From the NCBI RefSeq assembly GCF_000169175.1, contig NZ_AAWS01000046.1, forward strand, positions 1 through 64,000: a DNA stretch of 64,000 bases. Direction: 5' to 3'. The stretch is from Microscilla marina ATCC 23134 (lineage in GTDB: Bacteria > Bacteroidota > Bacteroidia > Cytophagales > Microscillaceae). The notes beneath the pieces were generated by a model. It worked only from the letters and a program-made list of their open reading frames with translations. It was not told the DNA's origin and did no database searches. Of the stretch, positions 55,113 through 63,697 are shown piece after piece (within the stretch, counting starts at the first letter, position 1; each line of letters opens with the position of its first letter). The translations under genes were made by a program, and so were the position numbers.

Positions 55113-56543
55113 CTATTTTTGACTGGCAGGAGCGATCACTTGTATTGCTTGCTCCAGTTCATCTAGTGACTCATAAATATTTTCAATAAATTTGTCCAGG
55201 TCGGGCATTAGTTCACGGCACGAAGTAGCACTAATAGTAATAGCCCCAGCATAACTAAAGACTACCATCAATAGCCCGGCCCCGTCTATGAGTGGCGCAG
55301 TACCATAGTGGTTCAACAGTTTAGCTCCTCCCATGTACAAGGGAATCGGAGGACCAGGTACATTGGTGATGACCAGGTTATATATAGGGCGTATATACTC
55401 TACTACTTTCGACTTGGTATACAAGCGCGCCGCCAGGGCTGCCAGTTCCGAAGGCACCAAATCCATAATCTTGTCGGCACCTATAGCCTTGCTATATACC
55501 TTAGAGCTGGTAGCACTTTCATGAATAAGCATCAAACGCTTAAAAGGGTCTTCTTCGTTGGTAGCAAGCGATACCAACATAGCCGATACCTTATTGCCCA
55601 TCGTCCCCTTGTCTTCTTCGCTGCGTACCGATATAGGAGCCATTGCCACCAAAGGCTTTTTGGGCAAGTTATTTTTGTCTTTTAGGTAACGCCGCAAAGC
55701 ACCTGCACATACTGCCAATACTACATTGTTGACAGTGGTCTTGGCAATATTTTTCATTTTTTTGATGCGTTCCAGCGGAATATTGGCTCCACCAAAAATA
55801 CGATGCGCAGTTACCGGAGCATTAAACAAAGTAGTGGGGGCAGTAAATGGCATTGGGGGGGGCTCTATCCATTTGGTAATGGCCTCTTTTGCCACATCTA
55901 TAGTATTGCCTACTGCCTCATACAAAAACTTGGCAAGCTTTACCGGGGTGCCCACCGATTTGATATAGTTACGGGCAATGATCTCTATACCAGTAGGAAT
56001 ACGCTCAGACTCCCAATAATGGTGTTCTTCATTGTCTTTGGGGCGTTTTGCGGGTGACGGATTCAGCAAAGCTCCCATCATTTCGGCGCCGGAGCCTCCA
56101 TCTATAGCCGCGTGGTGTACTTTGGTAATAAGGGCAAACGAGTTGGGTGGAATTCCTTCAATATTGAGTCCTTCGGCTATGGTAATTTCCCACAAAGGGC
56201 GTTTGCGATCCATTGTACGACTAAAAATACGGGCGGCAAGGTCGAGCAATTCTTGTGAGCCACCTGGTTGAGGAATGGCCACATGGTGTAGGTGGTATTC
56301 CAGGTCAAAATCTGGGTCTTCTATCCAATAAGGGTGACTCATGTCTAAAGGTGCTTCTACTAAGCGTTGCCTGAAAACCCTTGAAATGTGTAAACGAGAT
56401 TCGATGAAATCGCGGAATTGATAGTAATTAAAGCGCTCATTGTCTTTGGAAGGTTCAAATATGTACACCCCTCCTACGTGCATAGGGGCACGGTTTGACT
56501 CTATATATAAAAAAGTGGCATCTAAGCCCGAAAGTTGTTGCAT
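55113..56543 (-). CDS. Wax ester synthase / diacylglycerol acyltransferase (WS/DGAT)
   Basis: 476 residues, usual for the family. It transfers acyl groups from acyl-CoA to long-chain alcohols or diacylglycerol to give storage wax or triacylglycerol at the membrane. The active-site block is KVHHAAIDGGSGAEM (HHxxxDG). It begins MQQLSGLDATFLYIESNRAP, and has the PLWEITIAEGL block before the active site. NNVVLAVCAGALRRYL, MAPISVRSEEDKGTMGNKVS and NLVITNVPGPPIPLYM follow. Terminator at 55050. With the PHA locus this suggests two storage lipids. Confidence 0.9.
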   Translation of the reverse strand: MQQLSGLDATFLYIESNRAPMHVGGVYIFEPSKDNERFNYYQFRDFIESRLHISRVFRQRLVEAPLDMSHPYWIEDPDFDLEYHLHHVAIPQPGGSQELLDLAARIFSRTMDRKRPLWEITIAEGLNIEGIPPNSFALITKVHHAAIDGGSGAEMMGALLNPSPAKRPKDNEEHHYWESERIPTGIEIIARNYIKSVGTPVKLAKFLYEAVGNTIDVAKEAITKWIEPPPMPFTAPTTLFNAPVTAHRIFGGANIPLERIKKMKNIAKTTVNNVVLAVCAGALRRYLKDKNNLPKKPLVAMAPISVRSEEDKGTMGNKVSAMLVSLATNEEDPFKRLMLIHESATSSKVYSKAIGADKIMDLVPSELAALAARLYTKSKVVEYIRPIYNLVITNVPGPPIPLYMGGAKLLNHYGTAPLIDGAGLLMVVFSYAGAITISATSCRELMPDLDKFIENIYESLDELEQAIQVIAPASQK

Positions 56544-56911
56544 AATAATCGGCTTGGTTACTTGCCAGACAAATATTTGTCAAGCTATTTCAAATAAATG
56601 TAAAATTTATTTGAAACTCAAGTGGATTTGCCAAAAGAAGCGAGGGTAAGTGTAGAGGTTTGTCTGAAGCAATGCTACATACAAGTATAAAATAAGGGGA
56701 AAAAACTGAAACGATGGTTTTTACGAAAACATCTATTTTACCTTTGTTATTTAATGATTTAAATTGTTTGTGTACCATTTTGGCGATTTTTGCAAAAACT
56801 TACTCATCAGGCCTTGAGTATACCTATAGTAATATCCATTCATTTTATTATAGGTCATAGTTGAAAAACAAGTGGGTTATGCCAACTCACTATTAAATCA
56901 CCAAAATTCAT
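56544..56911. other. Intergenic region between divergent genes
   Basis: AT-rich, no convincing gene or hairpin. It holds the promoters of the WS/DGAT and 56912 genes. Confidence 0.35.
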
Positions 56912-57358
56912 ATGCGAACATTACATCAATCAGATTACGTCAAAATATTTTATGCTTCAGAAGAAAATATCTTGACATACCAATGGCTCAGTGCATCAGC
57001 AACAATGCCTGATCAAGCGTTTAAACAAGAAATGCTACGAATACCTGAGATTTCGGCAGAGTACAGACCCACAGGTTTTTTAGAAGACAATACCCAACGC
57101 GATTTCATTATCCGGCCAGAGCTACAGTGCTGGATAAGTACCGAAATAGCTCCTCATCAGTTCGAGTATGGTACTTCGTACTTTGCGCTGACTAATCCCC
57201 CTTCTTATGTGGCGCAATTGTCTACTCAACAAACGATGGACGAAATAAAAAAACAGATTAAAAAGTCGTTCAATGTAGCTTACTTCGATGATCACCCTCA
57301 AGCCTGGGAGTGGCTTTGTCTTCAGCAAATGACGGTAGGAGATGTGAGTATTGTATAA
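56912..57358 (+). CDS. STAS/SpoIIAA-like small protein, paralogue of 24282
   Basis: 148 residues. Pattern VKIFYASEENILTYQWLSAS, a central strand (RDFIIRPELQCWISTEIAPH) and a terminal VAYFDDHPQAWEWL give the same alpha/beta layout as the 24282 protein (its FKDLESAKDWV end corresponds). No catalytic or membrane feature. It precedes the terminator hairpin at 57458 and the CRISPR array, with which it is probably unconnected. Confidence 0.55.
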   Translation: MRTLHQSDYVKIFYASEENILTYQWLSASATMPDQAFKQEMLRIPEISAEYRPTGFLEDNTQRDFIIRPELQCWISTEIAPHQFEYGTSYFALTNPPSYVAQLSTQQTMDEIKKQIKKSFNVAYFDDHPQAWEWLCLQQMTVGDVSIV

Positions 57359-57457
57359 CTAAATGTAATTATTTGACTTTTATATTAAATAATACAACGA
57401 TCATCACTTGCTATTTTGTTTTTAAATTTTACTCAATCTTTATTTTATATTTACAAT

Positions 57458-57492
57458 AAACCCTCTTGATACATAAACATCAAGGGGGTTTG
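57458..57492 (+). terminator. Terminator of the 56912 gene
   Basis: AAACCCTCTTGAT and ATCAAGGGGGTTT pair around eight loop bases. Confidence 0.7.
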
Positions 57493-57597
57493 TGCTTTAG
57501 CAGTGGTTTAGTCTGTACTACCTGACAATCGCCCAGTCAATAACACCCACATTTTTGTGGAGCCAGATTATTGACGGATGTACAGAAATTGAACCTG

Positions 57598-59221
57598 TTT
57601 TCGCATCTTGTATGGTGCTATTAAGGTAAAGGTTGTGCTTCTGTTTGAGGATTTGGTAGACCTGTTTCAAATCCTATATGGTGCTATTAAGGTTATCATT
57701 GGCACAAACGAAAAAGTAAGTCGCAGGGTGATTTCAAATCCTATATGGTGCGATTAAGGTTGATTCCCTGCTTTGTTTGTACCGCAGTTGTTTCACATTT
57801 CAAATCCTATATGGTGCGATTAAGGTGTAGTCAGCACGGCTGATGATGCAAATGTAGCAGCATTTCAAATCCTATATGGTGCGATTAAGGTGGAAACTGT
57901 CAATATGCTGATCAGACTCGGTTAAAAATTTCAAATCCTATATGGTGCTATTAAGGTAGGTGGTGGCGGTGGTGGAATTTCACAACATCCACCCTATTTC
58001 AAATCCTATATGGTGCTATTAAGGTAAAACACCAACACGGCAACTAACACCTACTACTCATATTTCAAATCCTATATGGTGCTATTAAGGTTTACCAGTG
58101 CCGATGTAAACAGGCCACTACAGACCAATTTCAAATCCTATATGGTGCTATTAAGGTTTACTTCTTCTTTATCGTCGTAATAAGTAGTGTGCGCATTTCA
58201 AATCCTATATGGTGCTATTAAGGTAGTAGCCGCTTTGGTGAAAAACTCTATACGCTTTCCTGATTTCAAATCCTATATGGTGCTATTAAGGTGAGGGCAA
58301 AGTAAATCTACCAGTCCAAGCTTACTACCATTTCAAATCCTATATGGTGCTATTAAGGTATTACTGAAGATATAGATGTATATGCCCTAAAAGGATTTCA
58401 AATCCTATATGGTGCTATTAAGGTTTACACTTGTTTTCCCAACCATCACCATAAAAAAGGATTTCAAATCCTATATGGTGCTATTAAGGTTTTTACAACA
58501 GGTATATGCATCTCCCTCTTGATTAAATTTCAAATCCTATATGGTGCTATTAAGGTGCAATTCAAAAAAAGAGCACTGGAAATCCATGATACCATTTCAA
58601 ATCCTATATGGTGCTATTAAGGTATTTAGGAATTAAACCTCAACCTCAGCGCCAGTTTAATTTCAAATCCTATATGGTGCTATTAAGGTAGAAATCTATA
58701 AAACACCTTACTACATTACTACAAATTTCAAATCCTATATGGTGCTATTAAGGTATACGATGCTTATCACCCCTGGGCCAAACCTAATCAATTTCAAATC
58801 CTATATGGTGCGATTAAGGTAACGAAAGGTAAAGCAACAAGATATTGCTGATATATGTTTCAAATCCTATATGGTGCGATTAAGGTCCCTGAGAGGTATC
58901 AATCTTTAGTAGCAAACATAAGAGTTTCAAATCCTATATGGTGCGATTAAGGTTTTTTACGCTTGTATTGAACTACTTATCCCAATTCTCGTTTCAAATC
59001 CTATATGGTGCGATTAAGGTGTAAACGCTTGATTTACAGGGAGTTATGTTTTGGTAGGTTTCAAATCCTATATGGTGCGATTAAGGTCCTTTTATGATTT
59101 GGTACATTCGTATTAATCTAAATTCGTTTCAAATCCTATATGGTGCGATTAAGGTGTTTCTTGCATCATCTAATACTCCAGTGTAATAGTCGTTTCAAAT
59201 CCTATATGGTGCGATTAAGGT
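57598..59221 (-). CRISPR. CRISPR array, 25 repeats of 30 bp and 24 spacers
   Basis: The repeat on the plus strand is a 30-mer, (G/A)TTTCAAATCCTATATGG followed by TGC(T/G)ATTAAGGT; spacers are 35-38 bp. The left-most copy (57598-57627) is degenerate, so that is the trailer. Reading the minus strand, each repeat ends TTTGAAAC or TTTGAAAT, an eight-nucleotide crRNA handle of the type I-B/III kind, and cas2 lies just beyond the right end. Transcription is therefore leftward from a leader at about 59222-59560. Two positions vary: the crRNA-handle end base (C in copies 2 and 20-25, T in 3-19) and an internal T/G (G in copies 3-5 and 19-25). No spacer origins were searched. Confidence 0.97.
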
Positions 59222-59565
59222 CCGTTAAATTTAGTAAAAAAAATATGCCATACAACGTATGTGCGTAGCTTCTAGAGCTCAATATTTAAAAAAATGTCGT
59301 CGGTCTCCAGTAATACGATTTGCCCTGGAGACTGACGACATTGTAATGCGCTTATAGTCAGTTAGTTGTAAGTAAAGAAGTTTTTTCACACCAGTTTCGC
59401 CTGTATTTTTTCTGAGACCGACGACAATACCCCCTCTCAGGTGCTCTAAACTCCGGTTTTTAGCCGCCTGCTACTGTAGGGTTTTGTATCAATATTTTTC
59501 AAGATGTCAAAGAACTTTTGGCAAACGATACACATCGTTATCAGGCAACCTTTAAGTACCCCAAT
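59222..59565 (-). promoter_or_regulatory. CRISPR leader with inverted repeats
   Basis: No gene. A 16-bp stem, TGTCGTCGGTCTCCAG (59295-59310) with CTGGAGACTGACGACA (59325-59340), has one mismatch that would be a G-U pair in RNA and a 14-base loop. A third copy of the right arm, GAGACCGACGACA, is at 59414-59426. A smaller dyad AACGATACACATCGTT is at 59524-59539. Leader function is inferred from its place between the newest repeats and cas2. Confidence 0.6.
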
Positions 59566-59829
59566 TTAAATAAAATTATCCAAATCATTCTTTTCTTGCC
59601 CAACGATTTGTTTGTCCAACCACTTTTGCTCTCTGCTCTTAAACACAATGATGCTGTCATAAGCTTTGTCAATAAACTGATCAGCCTCCAGCAATAATTC
59701 CTTGAGCTTTACTTCACTTATCTCTCCCTCAAACACCGAGTTCTGTATCCAGTGGAGGTACCTGCGGCAAAGTTTCCGCATTTTATTTACCCGTTTCTCG
59801 CCACAATCATATACCAATATCACATACAT
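59566..59829 (-). CDS. cas2: CRISPR-associated Cas2
   Basis: 87 residues, the family size. Cas2 is a small ferredoxin-fold protein that forms the integration complex with Cas1. It starts MYVILVYDCGEKRVNKMRKL, whose first strand and Asp are the family signature, and has YLHWIQNSVFEGEISEVKLK in the second half. cas1 ends one base before its start (59831 versus 59829), so translation is coupled. It is the last gene of the leftward cas operon and the one next to the array leader. Confidence 0.95.
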   Translation of the reverse strand: MYVILVYDCGEKRVNKMRKLCRRYLHWIQNSVFEGEISEVKLKELLLEADQFIDKAYDSIIVFKSREQKWLDKQIVGQEKNDLDNFI

Positions 59830-59830
59830 A

Positions 59831-60841
59831 CTACCAACGCATTTTAAAAGGTGAATACTCGTCTATTCCCAACACATGCTTCACCAGCTTATAGCACTCC
59901 ATCCTTACCAACCTTCTATAGCTCACATTCTTGTTCATTGCCCGGTGTTTGATCGTTTCTTTCAGGCGTTCGTCCCAGGCCTTCAAATATATTTTTCCAC
60001 CCGACTCATTCAAGTAACAAGCATTGAGCTTTTTATCAAAATGCTTTGCCTGAATCTGTTTTTTGTTGAGTAAAGCAAATATCAACCTATCTACAAGTAC
60101 TGGTTTAAACACCTCTGCTATGTCCAGGGCAAGCGAATACCTTCGTGCTCCTGGCTCGTGCAAAAAGCTAATCGTAGGGTCGAGTTGGGTATGGTAAATC
60201 TGCCCTACACAAAGGTTATAACAAAAACTGTTGCCAAACGAAATAAGTGCATTTACCTCGTTCAGTGGAGGTTGGCGGCTCCTGCCTTGCATCGCAAAAT
60301 CGTTGATAATGGTATCAAATGCCTGGTAATACACCTGACGAACATTGCCCTCCAGCCCCATGAGTTCGGCAATAGGCATCTCCTGGGCTTGTCGGATAGT
60401 TTCATAATACTGTTTAATCTTACTTCCATACACTGTCACTTCTTTGCCTCGGTTTTGGTAATAGCCCAGGTTTTTGAGCATATTATAAATGCCCCCTTCA
60501 AGTAGCTTTCGTGCAATGACCAAACGTTGTGCAGGTTGGGTATAAGCCTGGGTTTGGGCAATATGTACTTTGCCCGCCAGCAAATAATCTTTAGGCATAA
60601 ACGAGCCTGTATAATGTTCATAGTAGTCAAAAAAATGAACCGGGATTTTTTGTTGCCCCAAAAAATTATACAAAGCGCTGTTAGCGTCTAAACTGCCCAG
60701 TACACACAATTCGTTAATATCATTAATGGGCAAATAGGTAGGTTTTTTAGCATTGCCCTCAGCATCTACCGGAGTAAACTTCAGGCTACGGTTATTTTTC
60801 GACAACCTACCAGGGTTGAACAGATAATAAGTTTTAGGCAT
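59831..60841 (-). CDS. cas1: CRISPR-associated endonuclease/integrase Cas1, subtype I-B
   Basis: 336 residues from the ATG at 60841; the frame to 60892 overlaps cas4 and is not Cas1-like. Cas1 inserts new spacers at the leader end. The metal site comprises the Glu in GLEGNVRQVYY, the His in SFLHEPGARRYSLALD and the acidic residue in LALDIAEVFKPVLVD. The N-terminus MPKTYYLFNPGRLSKNNRSL is typical of subtype I-B Cas1. Gap to cas4 14 bp, to cas2 one base, so one operon. Confidence 0.94.
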   Translation of the reverse strand: MPKTYYLFNPGRLSKNNRSLKFTPVDAEGNAKKPTYLPINDINELCVLGSLDANSALYNFLGQQKIPVHFFDYYEHYTGSFMPKDYLLAGKVHIAQTQAYTQPAQRLVIARKLLEGGIYNMLKNLGYYQNRGKEVTVYGSKIKQYYETIRQAQEMPIAELMGLEGNVRQVYYQAFDTIINDFAMQGRSRQPPLNEVNALISFGNSFCYNLCVGQIYHTQLDPTISFLHEPGARRYSLALDIAEVFKPVLVDRLIFALLNKKQIQAKHFDKKLNACYLNESGGKIYLKAWDERLKETIKHRAMNKNVSYRRLVRMECYKLVKHVLGIDEYSPFKMRW

Positions 60842-60855
60842 AGAATTTTTCTGTT

Positions 60856-61377
60856 TTAAAGGTCTTCTTCTGTTACTTCTTCGGCATAACAAAACTCAAA
60901 ATAACTACATCTACGGCAAAACGACTTCTTGAGCCGGGCAGGGCATTTGGTCTGGGCAATCAACTGTTCAATGGCTGCCAGTTGCTCAGGTATTTCTACT
61001 AAATCAATACTGGTGAGTAGTACCTCTTGGATTTTGCGCAGTTTGGGGTATTCCAACAGCCCTTTTGCATCAGTGATTCCTTGTTGATACAACAAATAAA
61101 GGTAATACTTTACTTGAGCAATGTGGGCTTCCTCCATCTTGTCCGATTTCTTTACTTCGTGGACAATACGCCGATGAGGATCATAAAAATCAATTTTAGC
61201 AATGCCCAAATCCAGCTCCGTATAACGCACGGGGCGTTGGGGGTAAGCAGCTTCGCCAATGAGTTTACCTTCATAAACCGTGTCAGAAGTATGCTCCATG
61301 GTAATGCCCGCCGCAAACAACCATAGCTTGCGGTGGCATATATGATAATAATTGAGGTGAGTAGGCGTGATTTGCAT
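60856..61377 (-). CDS. cas4: CRISPR-associated exonuclease Cas4
   Basis: 173 residues. Cas4 is a RecB-type 5' nuclease with an iron-sulfur cluster that selects and trims prespacers by PAM. Seen are the N-terminal Cys (YYHICHRKLWL), HEVKKSDKMEEAHIAQVKYY, with the catalytic E-x-K of the nuclease and the downstream Q-x-x-x-Y motif, and the C-terminal cysteines CPARLKKSFCRRCSYFEFC. It precedes cas1 by 14 bp and follows cas3 by 10 bp. All four expected cluster cysteines are present. Confidence 0.93.
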   Translation of the reverse strand: MQITPTHLNYYHICHRKLWLFAAGITMEHTSDTVYEGKLIGEAAYPQRPVRYTELDLGIAKIDFYDPHRRIVHEVKKSDKMEEAHIAQVKYYLYLLYQQGITDAKGLLEYPKLRKIQEVLLTSIDLVEIPEQLAAIEQLIAQTKCPARLKKSFCRRCSYFEFCYAEEVTEEDL

Positions 61378-61387
61378 GGCTTAAGTT

Positions 61388-63697
61388 TTAAAGTTGATTA
61401 TCGTCTATCCAGGTAATCTCTTCATCGTTTAACAAACCCAGGGCAGGGTCATATTTTTTGCGGGTTTCAAAATAGTCGATTTGTATATATCCATCCTTGT
61501 CGCCCTGTTTGCTCATCGTAAAATGATTGGTACGCACCAAGTGATTATCAAGCCACCCCTTAAATTTACCCTCTCGCACCTGCACCTTGAGATTTTCGGC
61601 ATTGATAAAATCAAAATCCTTCAAATACTCCTCAAACTGGGCGCGTTGCGCTTGCGGCAATACCTTTATCCCGTCAAACTGTCTATAGAATTCCTCTTCT
61701 TTAGTTTTAGAATGCACCAACGGCGAAAGTGTCTTCAATGATTGCTTCAAATACCCATAAGTCTTATCAAACTCCTTTTGTCCAGCCTCGTCCCAGGCAG
61801 GGTATACCTCGTCTATAAAATCCTGCAATTGATTTTCGTTGATCACCCCTTGATTGTTTACCGCGTTTCTTTCAAAAATCTCCAGAGTTTTGTCTACCAC
61901 TTGCTTGTTATAAATGTAAGTATCTGCCTTGTTACTTTGCTTAAATACCACACAGCGGCAAATCCCTTTTTTTTGTTGGCGGTTTACCCTGCCAAATCGT
62001 TGAATAAGGGCGTCTATAGGAGCAGGTTCGCTATAAATTACATCATAGTCAATATCTAAGCTCACTTCTATAGCCTGAGTACCTATCAACAGTTGTACTA
62101 CAGGGCTGGCATCTTGCGTATTCTCCCCCTTGAGCAACCGCTGTTCTTTTTGGTTGCGGTCTGCCCCATTAAAAGCCCCATGCAACAGTATTTTGGTGGC
62201 GCTGTGTTCAGCAAAGTATTGATAAGTCTCCTGGGCTTGTTTGACGGTGTTGCATACCACCAATACCTTTTTGCCAGCGTTGAGTTCTCCTTCAATCAAG
62301 GGGTAGTTATCTGCTAATAAGCCTTCTTGGAGCACCACTTGGTGTCTTCTAAAACTTTGGTACAAAGCCGCATCTGCTTCTATCTCTTGCGGGTTGCCCA
62401 AGACTTGCCTCAATTCTTGCTTGAGAAAGCGTGGCAAAGTAGCCGTCATAATCATCACCTGGCTATGCAAATGCTGGGTCATAAACTCCAGCAATACCTT
62501 GATCTGAGCCGCTACCTGGGGGCTATAGGCGTGTATCTCGTCAAAAATCAAATAGCTGCCTACCCATTCAAACACCCCTTGTTCGAAGCCCCGCAAGCCA
62601 AACAAATGCTTCAGCAATTGGAAAGGAGTCACCACTTTTATGGGAGTCAGTATATGCTTAAACTTTTCCCTTAACTCTCTTATCTTTTCTTTCCGTTCGC
62701 TGGTAGTATATTGGTGTTCCTCAAAATAATGACTCAAATAAGCACTCAATTTACCGTGCAGCATGCCCACCTTTTTGGTTGCTTCGGTGTCCATATCTTT
62801 GCTAAGTCGCTCATACATGGCATTGATAGACGCAGTAAAAGGTAAGATATAAAAAGCCCTGCCTTGCCCAGTGTGTGCCAATTGGTTTTTGAGCCAAAGC
62901 AAAGCGCTTTCTGTTTTGCCCGAACCCGTAGGCGCAGTTAAAATCAAATGTCCCTTTACCCTGCTACATAGTTTTTGGTGGGTATAAAAGTCCTTGCCCC
63001 CCAATTGCAACCTGATGCGCAAATGACGCAAAAACTCAAAGTCATAGTTTTCTAATTTAGGCAAATGAGCAACCCTTGCCGAACCCAAATGATCGCAATG
63101 TTTCAGGGCACCAAACAACAGCAACAAAAACCAGTAATTGGGATGGCTTGATACCCAAGGTCGTTTTTTATACCTTCTCACAAAACCTTCAATATCAATT
63201 GCCTGAATAGTTGTTATTTTTACCGCATAAGAATGTAACAACTCCTTTACCTTCGGTTGATCTACATAGGCGTAAAAAACTTCATGAAAAGTCTCTCTAT
63301 CATCATCAAAAGAAAACTCATCTGCCCCATAAGTTTTTTCTATAAAATCAGTCAAAAGCACCTGAAAGTTTTTGTGATGCCCTGCCACCACTAACATCAG
63401 CACCTCCTGAATGGCCTCATCTATATCAAAAGCCTTGATAAAAGGCACCGAAAACAATTCATGCCTTTGGCGGTTCCACTCATTCTTTTTATCCCTCAGT
63501 AGTTTTTGAAACTCCTGGTGTGCCTTGCCCAAATCATGAAAAACAATGGCAAGCCACAACACCTCCCAAAATCGTTCAAAACCAGGCAGTTTGTCTATAG
63601 CAGGAAACAATGTGGGCAAGTATTTATGTATGCCCAAGCAATCATCTATATGTTGTTTTAGCGTAAGCGGTGGGGTTGATTTTGCCAGTATATCCAT
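61388..63697 (-). CDS. cas3: CRISPR-associated helicase/nuclease Cas3
   Basis: 769 residues. Cas3 is recruited by Cascade and unwinds and degrades target DNA. An N-terminal HD nuclease domain has LKQHIDDCLGIH, WLAIVFHDLGKAHQEFQ and a later VAGHHKNFQ. The helicase carries LTAPTGSGKTESAL, FDEIHAYSPQ (DEIH box), MTATLPRFL, IGTQAIEVSLDIDYDVI and LIQRFGRVNRQ. Order of motifs and length are normal for HD-helicase fusions of type I-B. The gene upstream ends 73 bp before it and is probably Cas5. Confidence 0.95.
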   Translation of the reverse strand: MDILAKSTPPLTLKQHIDDCLGIHKYLPTLFPAIDKLPGFERFWEVLWLAIVFHDLGKAHQEFQKLLRDKKNEWNRQRHELFSVPFIKAFDIDEAIQEVLMLVVAGHHKNFQVLLTDFIEKTYGADEFSFDDDRETFHEVFYAYVDQPKVKELLHSYAVKITTIQAIDIEGFVRRYKKRPWVSSHPNYWFLLLLFGALKHCDHLGSARVAHLPKLENYDFEFLRHLRIRLQLGGKDFYTHQKLCSRVKGHLILTAPTGSGKTESALLWLKNQLAHTGQGRAFYILPFTASINAMYERLSKDMDTEATKKVGMLHGKLSAYLSHYFEEHQYTTSERKEKIRELREKFKHILTPIKVVTPFQLLKHLFGLRGFEQGVFEWVGSYLIFDEIHAYSPQVAAQIKVLLEFMTQHLHSQVMIMTATLPRFLKQELRQVLGNPQEIEADAALYQSFRRHQVVLQEGLLADNYPLIEGELNAGKKVLVVCNTVKQAQETYQYFAEHSATKILLHGAFNGADRNQKEQRLLKGENTQDASPVVQLLIGTQAIEVSLDIDYDVIYSEPAPIDALIQRFGRVNRQQKKGICRCVVFKQSNKADTYIYNKQVVDKTLEIFERNAVNNQGVINENQLQDFIDEVYPAWDEAGQKEFDKTYGYLKQSLKTLSPLVHSKTKEEEFYRQFDGIKVLPQAQRAQFEEYLKDFDFINAENLKVQVREGKFKGWLDNHLVRTNHFTMSKQGDKDGYIQIDYFETRKKYDPALGLLNDEEITWIDDNQL

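What the first reader, a model, noticed from the sequence alone, without database searches (positions are those of the whole stretch)
59295..59426. Strong hairpin and a third arm copy in the CRISPR leader
A 16-bp inverted repeat with one RNA-tolerable G-U position lies between cas2 and the newest repeat, and a 13-base copy of one arm recurs 75 bp away. Leaders usually carry AT-rich DNA and integration motifs, not a near-perfect 16-bp hairpin. It could be an operator for a cas regulator, a structured RNA or the binding site of an adaptation host factor. The compensated mismatch hints at selection on RNA pairing.
Basis: partly seen in the sequence, partly recalled or inferred. Interest (0 to 1): 0.65.

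Follow-up and report, generated by a model that had tools for sequence, protein, structure and literature searches.

The report
Phased integration landmark in CRISPR leader
The hairpin-like sequence beside this bacterium's CRISPR array is one copy of a set of conserved DNA landmarks found next to arrays of the same CRISPR type in many bacteria and some archaea, most likely marking where new virus memories are inserted; it is a widespread and testable DNA signal rather than a special RNA.

Summary
The inverted repeat and third arm are real, but are one example of something general. In type I-B CRISPR leaders of Bacteroidota a 44-bp dyad (GTYGTCGA...TCGACRAC, AT-rich centre) sits at a set distance from the first repeat, with a third half-site about 87 bp upstream and sometimes a fourth at the leader-repeat junction. 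A model of the dyad, run on whole genomes without protein context, finds mostly CRISPR leaders: 31 of 34 places at E<=1e-3 in 116 genomes (window and training loci included). The three half-sites change together between species over about 10 bp, arm1 as much as the inverted pair. Distance to the repeat falls near 32, 53, 64, 74 and 84 bp, steps of about one helical turn. A same-genus relative has all three arms rewritten at nearly the same spacing. This argues for DNA recognition by a co-evolving partner, most likely the Cas1-Cas2 adaptation complex with a DNA bender; no binding was tested. A shorter core (GTCGA, 38-39 bp span) was found in 8 of 8 haloarchaeal and 2 of 2 Firmicute leaders read, not in several others. 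The claimed G-U exists only in antisense RNA; the sense strand has an A.C mismatch.

The parts
59222..59565 (-). CRISPR leader (cas2 stop to first repeat), 344 bp; about 138 bp longer than most relatives, the extra part lying between the cas2 stop and arm1
59414..59425 (-). arm1 (third copy), half-site GTCGTCGGTCTC, 86 bp upstream of arm2 start
59328..59339 (-). arm2, left half-site of the 44-bp dyad (GTCGTCAGTCTC); the complementary stretch in this genome covers 59325-59342
59308..59327 (-). AT-rich centre of the dyad (CAGGGCAAATCGTATTACTG), weak resemblance to an IHF-type site
59296..59307 (-). arm3, right half-site in inverted orientation (GAGACCGACGAC); ends 74 bp from the first repeat
59288..59294 (-). 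T-run right after arm3
59500..59515 (-). boxA-like sequence GTTCTTTGACATCTTG; in most relatives that have it, it lies between arm1 and arm2, here upstream of arm1
59192..59221 (-). leader-proximal CRISPR repeat (30 bp)
57599..59221 (-). CRISPR array, 25 repeats with up to 6 mismatches
59566..59829 (-). cas2
59831..60841 (-). cas1, type I-B (TIGR03641 above cut-off)
60856..61377 (-). cas4
61388..63697 (-). cas3

Best explanation
The hairpin is a DNA landmark, not primarily an RNA. Three copies of a roughly 10-bp half-site (arm1, arm2 and inverted arm3) frame an AT-rich centre and lie at a preferred helical phase from the leader-repeat junction. The type I-B adaptation complex (Cas1-Cas2, probably with Cas4) reads the half-sites. 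A DNA-bending protein of the HU/IHF family probably folds the centre so that arm2 and arm3 come together and arm1 loops in. This places the integrase on repeat 1, so that new spacers enter at the leader end. Shown here by comparison: conservation, geometry, helical spacing classes, concerted change of the three arms, presence at I-B-type arrays with no cas2 in the fetched stretch, absence of the dyad at the four other arrays checked.
For: Rigid dyad: with L015 set aside, GTC and GAC at the same spacing in 76 of 77 distinct best-scoring elements; gapless 60-column alignment of 76. arm1-to-arm2 start 85-91 bp in 67 of 78. Distance to repeat in 111 elements (some near-identical or from one genome): 32 (1), 53 (2), 62-66 (21), 72-80 (85, of which 81 at 72-77), 83-84 (2); best period for the 26 outside the main class 10.5-10.75 bp. 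The 64/74 label needs 3 changes on a Cas1 tree of 76, at least 2 forced; 32, 53 and 83-84 come from one further genome each. Sister-pair test, 35 pairs: concordant double changes at positions 1-10 arm1-arm2 14 vs 4.6, arm2-arm3 11 vs 3.0, arm1-arm3 12 vs 4.1 expected, 0 of 2000 shuffles each; positions 11-14: 3 vs 3.4, 7 vs 5.0, 7 vs 3.9 (p 0.68, 0.23, 0.09). L015, same genus: arm2/arm3 GTCTGAAACC, arm1 GTCTGTAACC (9/10), dyad 45 bp, arm1-arm2 87 bp, 75-76 bp to the repeat; a second place in that genome has the same rewritten dyad before a single repeat-like sequence. Genome-wide model search: 31 of 34 places at E<=1e-3 in 116 genomes next to an array, 13 of the 31 with no cas2 in the fetched stretch; 14 of 16 new places phylum-wide. 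Half-site density 152 hits in 15,038 bp of leader vs 73 in the 106,500 bp upstream of the cas2 stops. Fourth copy near the junction in 13 of 71. Divergence of Cas1, not Cas2 or Cas4, correlates with off-consensus arms: rho 0.34 p 0.004 (n 72); 0.02 p 0.84 (71); 0.13 p 0.29 (68). Core GTCGA dyad in 8 of 8 haloarchaeal and 2 of 2 Firmicute leaders read.
Against: No binding or integration experiment exists here. G.U-type mismatches exceed A.C-type 51 to 11 at positions 1-8 in the sense strand of 77 elements, a hint of RNA tolerance that arm-specific base preferences or the T-run may explain. Without ancestry control arm2-arm3 also match at position 11 (33 vs 22.4, p 0.0025). A T-run follows arm3 in 41 of 71. 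The centre matches the IHF consensus (recalled) only slightly better than shuffles, 6.69 vs 6.02 of 9. Four of 21 leaders without nearby cas2 lack arm1; the second G007 place and L126 show none either. No dyad above chance in two Campylobacterota I-B leaders or in Salinibacter; Thermus only a variant. In the two own-genome extra arrays the dyad is 38 bp with its centre flipped, arm1 is only 6/8, and the model match is weak, E 0.113. Firmicute dyads lie 136-139 bp from the repeat. The Cas1 correlation is not corrected for ancestry, and L015's Cas4 is also divergent (rank 2 of 81). First-repeat positions are uncertain by 1-2 bp and the main spacing class is broad.
Confidence: 0.7

Rival explanations
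1. A structured leader RNA: the arms pair in the transcript that runs from cas2 into the array and control its elongation, stability or processing, together with the boxA-like element (terminator/antiterminator or nut-like arrangement).
For: Very stable fold in the window; 12-pair covariation 0.298 vs 0.150 shuffled and 0.05-0.11 when slid; G.U-type mismatches exceed A.C-type 51 to 11; arm2-arm3 match at position 11 without ancestry control; boxA-like element in 43 of 71 cas2-linked leaders and T-run after arm3 in 41 of 71.
Against: arm1, outside the hairpin, co-changes as strongly, and no significant excess beyond position 10 in sister pairs; spacing classes near one helical turn; boxA-like element in only 2 of 21 leaders without nearby cas2 that keep the dyad; sense-strand A.C mismatch in the window; consensus RNA fold only -3.35 kcal/mol over 5 pairs.
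Confidence: 0.13
2. An operator: a transcription regulator, perhaps the product of the gene divergent from cas6, binds the half-sites and controls the array promoter.
For: Repeated half-sites with dyad symmetry and concerted evolution fit any co-evolving DNA-binding protein; a gene of unknown family lies divergent from cas6 (I took it for a WYL-type regulator from memory, Pfam gives no match).
Against: No half-site at 7/8 in the intergenic region upstream of cas6; the own-genome model hits below E 1 are only the three array leaders; spacing classes are relative to the repeat and a fourth copy abuts the integration site in 13 of 71. The array promoter itself was not mapped, so this is not excluded.
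Confidence: 0.13
3. An intrinsic terminator of the cas operon.
For: Hairpin plus T7 on the sense strand in the window.
Against: 14-nt loop here and a conserved centre with fixed 44-bp span in relatives; not found by the terminator scan; T-run also at 17 of 21 leaders with no cas2 in the fetched stretch.
Confidence: 0.03
4. A small mobile element (MITE) bounded by the outer arms 59295 and 59426.
For: 13/13 inverted copies flank 132 bp and the leader is about 138 bp longer than in most relatives.
Against: The arms are conserved at the same spacing in relatives and the extra length lies outside arm1; exact copies elsewhere in the genome are only in two other CRISPR leaders.
Confidence: 0.01

Closest known systems
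Type I-F leader inverted-repeat motifs with IHF (Pseudomonas aeruginosa Cas1-2/3)
   Same: Inverted repeats in the leader, DNA folding, recognition by the integrase (PMC12259127, passages)
   Different: Type I-B; GTCGA-type half-sites in three or four copies; separate Cas2, Cas4 and Cas3; no protein contact shown
Type I-E leader: IHF site plus integrase-anchoring site
   Same: A bend in the leader helps dock Cas1-Cas2 at repeat 1 (IHF role in passages of PMC5815122; the anchoring site is recalled)
   Different: Here the leader is about 200 bp or more and the dyad lies mostly 74 bp from the repeat
Inverted-repeat motifs reported in Clostridioides difficile I-B leaders
   Same: Same CRISPR subtype, two conserved inverted-repeat motifs upstream of every array (PMC8406132, passages)
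   Different: That figure was not seen; I do not know whether sequence, spacing or phase agree
boxA elements upstream of CRISPR arrays (Stringer et al. 2020, not held)
   Same: boxA-like GTTCTTTGACAT is in many of these leaders (cited in PMC7862264, passages)
   Different: A separate element: it goes with cas2 linkage, the half-sites do not

Membership tests
Type I-B CRISPR-Cas leader | Adjacent Cas1 of the I-B family, cas2, and array in the right order | tested here: met
   TIGR03641 428.5 bits vs cut-off 304.1; order; cas6 in the same operon
Phase-dependent, bend-directed leader (I-E/I-F kind) | Recognition motif kept on one helical face relative to the repeat | tested here: met
   Distance classes 32, 53, 62-66, 72-80, 83-84; comparative only, main class broad
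Phase-dependent, bend-directed leader (I-E/I-F kind) | IHF-family binding site in the leader | tested here: inconclusive
   6.69 vs 6.02 of 9 consensus positions; one HU/IHF-family gene found in the genome
Phase-dependent, bend-directed leader (I-E/I-F kind) | Direct contact of Cas1 or Cas2 with the upstream motif | not testable with these tools
   Only an ancestry-uncorrected correlation with Cas1 divergence
Intrinsic terminator | GC-rich stem, loop of 3-8, T-run | tested here: not met
   Scan finds none at this place; loop 14 nt
Rfam RNA family | Match to a curated covariance model | tested here: not met
   No match with E up to 1 in 56000-61000
MITE or insertion sequence end | Several dispersed copies in the genome | tested here: not met
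   Exact arm copies only in three CRISPR leaders; seven one-mismatch places, close to the control level, were not examined
boxA antitermination element | boxA consensus in the leader transcript | tested here: inconclusive
   Alignment-derived 16-mer matched at 12/16 or more in 43 of 71; its identity as boxA is recalled and no transcript was seen

The most novel reading that the evidence does not exclude
A leader code shared by much of type I-B across bacteria and archaea: a core dyad GTCGA-N28/29-TCGAC at a preferred helical phase from repeat 1, reinforced in Bacteroidota by a third and fourth half-site, read directly by Cas1 with a specificity that evolves with the leader (all three arms can be rewritten together). 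It would be the subtype's own address system and would also keep arrays away from the cas genes trainable.
Probability: 0.42. Interest if true: 0.75.

Novelty: new variant of a known kind. Interest (0 to 1): 0.6.

Why it matters
How adaptation complexes other than those of I-E and I-F are brought to the right end of an array is described as largely unknown (PMC9456107, passages). A conserved, phased, multi-copy motif with a natural rewritten version gives precise predictions about which bases and spacings matter for type I-B, and may offer a way to tell which arrays away from cas genes can still acquire spacers.

Tried and rejected
Considered and rejected: MITE (exact copies only in CRISPR leaders, arms conserved in relatives); intrinsic terminator; known RNA family (no match); operator shared with the cas promoter. 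A direct DNA search with the whole 344-bp leader was uninformative: the own genome and one 79% partial match, over query bases 271-331, in 57 genomes; no array was detected in that 3-kb stretch. Two literature searches gave mostly unrelated papers.

Rows dropped: of 94 loci had no recognisable cas2 (8 of them with distant Cas1) and were not used; L026 (no array by cas2) and L065 (contig end) were left out; the remaining 82 were used, 76 of them with a detected array. L015 and L048 were left out of the alignment A1 because their dyad is in another register. Five of 77 distinct elements without a clear arm1 were left out of the three-arm tests. An earlier count said 15 of 17 phylum-wide places; the recount is 14 of 16 new places.

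I tried to name the binding partner by looking for unusual residues. The two leaders with odd arms (window and L015) have the two most divergent Cas1 proteins of 86, while their Cas2 proteins are ordinary (ranks 13 and 25 of 83); but both are long branches and L015's Cas4 is divergent too (rank 2 of 81), so this is only suggestive. No structure prediction was run. Of 40 plasmid hits listed (174 records in all), 19 were read. In one search the leader start was not annotated for L181 (I used a guessed cas2 end) and for the two Thermus records I used the cas1 end.

My statement that I found no description of this layout rests on the searches in the held library only. Papers not held.

Full report
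Setting. The window ends in a type I-B CRISPR-Cas locus on the minus strand: cas3, cas4, cas1, cas2, then a 344-bp leader (59565 to 59222) and an array of 25 repeats. Cas1 scores 428.5 bits against the I-B model TIGR03641 (cut-off 304.1). In the direction of cas2 and the array, the arms read arm1 (59425-59414), arm2 (59339-59328) and, inverted, arm3 (59307-59296).

Observation. The inverted repeat and the third arm are as described and well beyond chance. The 'RNA-tolerable G-U' is on the plus strand only; in the strand that would carry leader RNA it is an A.C mismatch.

Relatives. Cas1 was used to fetch 80 loci from named genomes (the best 80 of 190) and 14 from the window's own genome and unnamed family members. 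Of these 94, 84 have cas2 and 82 were used. An alignment of 72 distinct leaders shows a common layout: arm1 soon after cas2, often a boxA-like GTTCTTTGACATATTG, arm2, an AT-rich centre, arm3 inverted, often a T-run, then a conserved leader end and the repeat. The dyad is rigid: 44 bp, with GTC and GAC at the same spacing in 76 of 77 distinct best-scoring elements, L015 set aside. arm1 lies 85-91 bp before arm2 in 67 of 78 (86 in the window). The window leader is longer only because about 138 bp lie between the cas2 stop and arm1, and its boxA-like sequence sits in that extra stretch.

It marks CRISPR leaders. A covariance model of the dyad (R1) was run on whole genomes without protein context. 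In the window's own genome the only places below E 1 are the window (1.6e-11) and, weakly (0.113), the leaders of two other arrays on contigs C9 and C45; the only Cas1 matches in this genome are on C46 and C8. In 116 genomes, 34 places reached E<=1e-3, the window and several training loci included; 31 have a repeat array just downstream, 13 of these with no cas2 in the stretch fetched (about 1.5 kb each side, less at contig ends); of the other three, L128 has a single repeat-like sequence and L155 and L135 have nothing. Some of the 13 may flank a cas locus further away. Phylum-wide, 16 of 296 genomes had a match, and 14 of 16 new places lie at an array. Four arrays with other repeats, beside distant Cas1 genes of the same family, lack the dyad; one 7/8 half-site lies near one of them, and flanks on one side were short or absent for three. 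The half-site is about 15 times denser in leaders than in the 1.5 kb upstream of the cas2 stop (152 in 15,038 bp vs 73 in 106,500 bp).

DNA or RNA. Base-pair counting on the 76-row alignment gives strong covariation (0.298 vs 0.150 shuffled, 0.05-0.11 when slid). Taken alone that would look like RNA, but three results speak for DNA. First, the arm outside the hairpin co-changes as strongly: in 35 sister-like pairs, concordant double changes at positions 1-10 were 14 vs 4.6 expected for arm1-arm2, 11 vs 3.0 for arm2-arm3 and 12 vs 4.1 for arm1-arm3 (0 of 2000 shuffles each); at positions 11-14 they were 3 vs 3.4, 7 vs 5.0 and 7 vs 3.9 (p 0.68, 0.23, 0.09). Second, distance from dyad to repeat falls in classes 32 (1), 53 (2), 62-66 (21), 72-80 (85, of which 81 at 72-77) and 83-84 (2) bp in 111 elements, about one helical turn apart; the 64-bp label changes three times by parsimony, at least twice, on a Cas1 tree, and the 32, 53 and 83-84 classes come from one further genome each (G002, G296, G101). 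Third, in the same-genus genome G007 all three arms are rewritten (GTCTGTAACC; GTCTGAAACC and its inverse) in a 45-bp dyad with arm1-arm2 87 bp and 75-76 bp to the repeat; a second place in that genome has the same rewritten dyad before a single repeat-like sequence, without a visible arm1. Results for RNA: G.U-type mismatches exceed A.C-type 51 to 11 at positions 1-8, arm2 and arm3 also match at position 11 when ancestry is ignored (33 vs 22.4), a T-run follows arm3 in 41 of 71, and the fold is stable in the window. A minor RNA role is therefore not excluded.

Separate element. The boxA-like sequence is in 43 of 71 cas2-linked leaders but in 2 of 21 leaders with no cas2 in the fetched stretch, where arm1 is kept in 17 of 21 (19% in shuffles) and the T-run in 17 of 21. 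The plausible reading is antitermination when the array is transcribed from the cas operon; the link between boxA and CRISPR arrays is cited in PMC7862264 (passages), the original paper not being held.

Mechanism. Most likely the adaptation complex recognises the half-sites and a bender folds the centre. A fourth half-site lies 12-17 bp before the repeat in 13 of 71 leaders. The centre resembles an IHF site only weakly (6.69 vs 6.02 of 9), and one HU/IHF-family gene was found in the genome. Among Cas1, Cas2 and Cas4, only divergence of Cas1 tracks departure of the arms from consensus (rho 0.34, p 0.004; 0.02, p 0.84; 0.13, p 0.29), without correction for ancestry. The stretch upstream of cas6 (Pfam Cas6) has no half-site, which speaks against an operator shared with the cas promoter; the divergent gene there has no Pfam match.

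Scope. Of 40 plasmid-borne relatives listed, 19 were read. With a search for a GTCGA dyad of 34-45 bp span, 11 of 19 beat all 100 shuffles: 8 of 8 haloarchaea (span 38-39, 56-57 bp from the repeat), 2 of 2 Firmicutes (span 38, but 136-139 bp from the repeat) and Flammeovirga; Hymenobacter (15/100) and one Thermus (10/100, GCCAACC...GGTTGAC) are weaker; Salinibacter, two Campylobacterota, a cyanobacterial I-D, a second Thermus and Aureibacter (the last two without an array within 700 bp) show nothing convincing. By arithmetic the same core in Bacteroidota spans 38 bp and mostly ends about 77 bp from the repeat, about two turns further than in haloarchaea.

What is known. Passages read: IHF directs I-E and I-F integration and elsewhere the recruitment is largely unknown (PMC9456107); [quoted passage not shown] I-F inverted repeats are contacted by Cas2 in the folded leader (PMC12259127); Cas1 and leaders co-evolve (PMC5815122); C. 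difficile I-B leaders share two inverted-repeat motifs (PMC8406132); leader differences may explain why one Haloferax volcanii array does not acquire spacers (PMC7521656). The paper on distribution and phasing of leader motifs (Santiago-Frangos 2021) is not held; from memory its abstract names I-C, I-E, I-F and II-C. In the searches I found no description of this three-site, phased I-B layout, but the paper most likely to hold one could not be read.

Verdict. In kind this is an ordinary, widespread part of type I-B leaders; its layout and co-evolution signal make a specific adaptation mechanism testable.

Noticed in passing
57599-59221: Repeat variants are in blocks: the 7 leader-proximal repeats have G where the next 13 have T, then 3 older ones have G and the last 2 T, as if the template repeat changed during array growth.
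   Followed up: no
L001 and L002 (own genome contigs C9 and C45): Two arrays on contigs without a Cas1 match, with near-identical leaders and the same neighbouring gene but different spacers in the parts printed, apparently a duplicated CRISPR locus; their dyad is 38 bp long with the centre reversed.
   Followed up: partly
L028, L033, L034, L035, L056 and others, last 40 bp of the leader: Besides the fourth half-site these leaders have a short GCCT..AGGC-type stem with T-run, like an intrinsic terminator, just before the array (seen by eye).
   Followed up: no
L126: Compact leader: the dyad starts about 5 bp after cas2 and only 32 bp from the repeat; no arm1 (best 4/8).
   Followed up: yes
L009:10903-11445 (beyond the window end): 180-aa open frame divergent from cas6, without a Pfam match; it reminded me of WYL-type regulators, from memory only.
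   Followed up: partly
L110 (own genome contig C8): A second CRISPR array with a different repeat on the contig of a distant Cas1; its 250-bp flanks have no half-sites at 7/8.
   Followed up: partly
56912-57358: 148-aa open frame beside the old end of the array with no Pfam or NCBIfam match.
   Followed up: no
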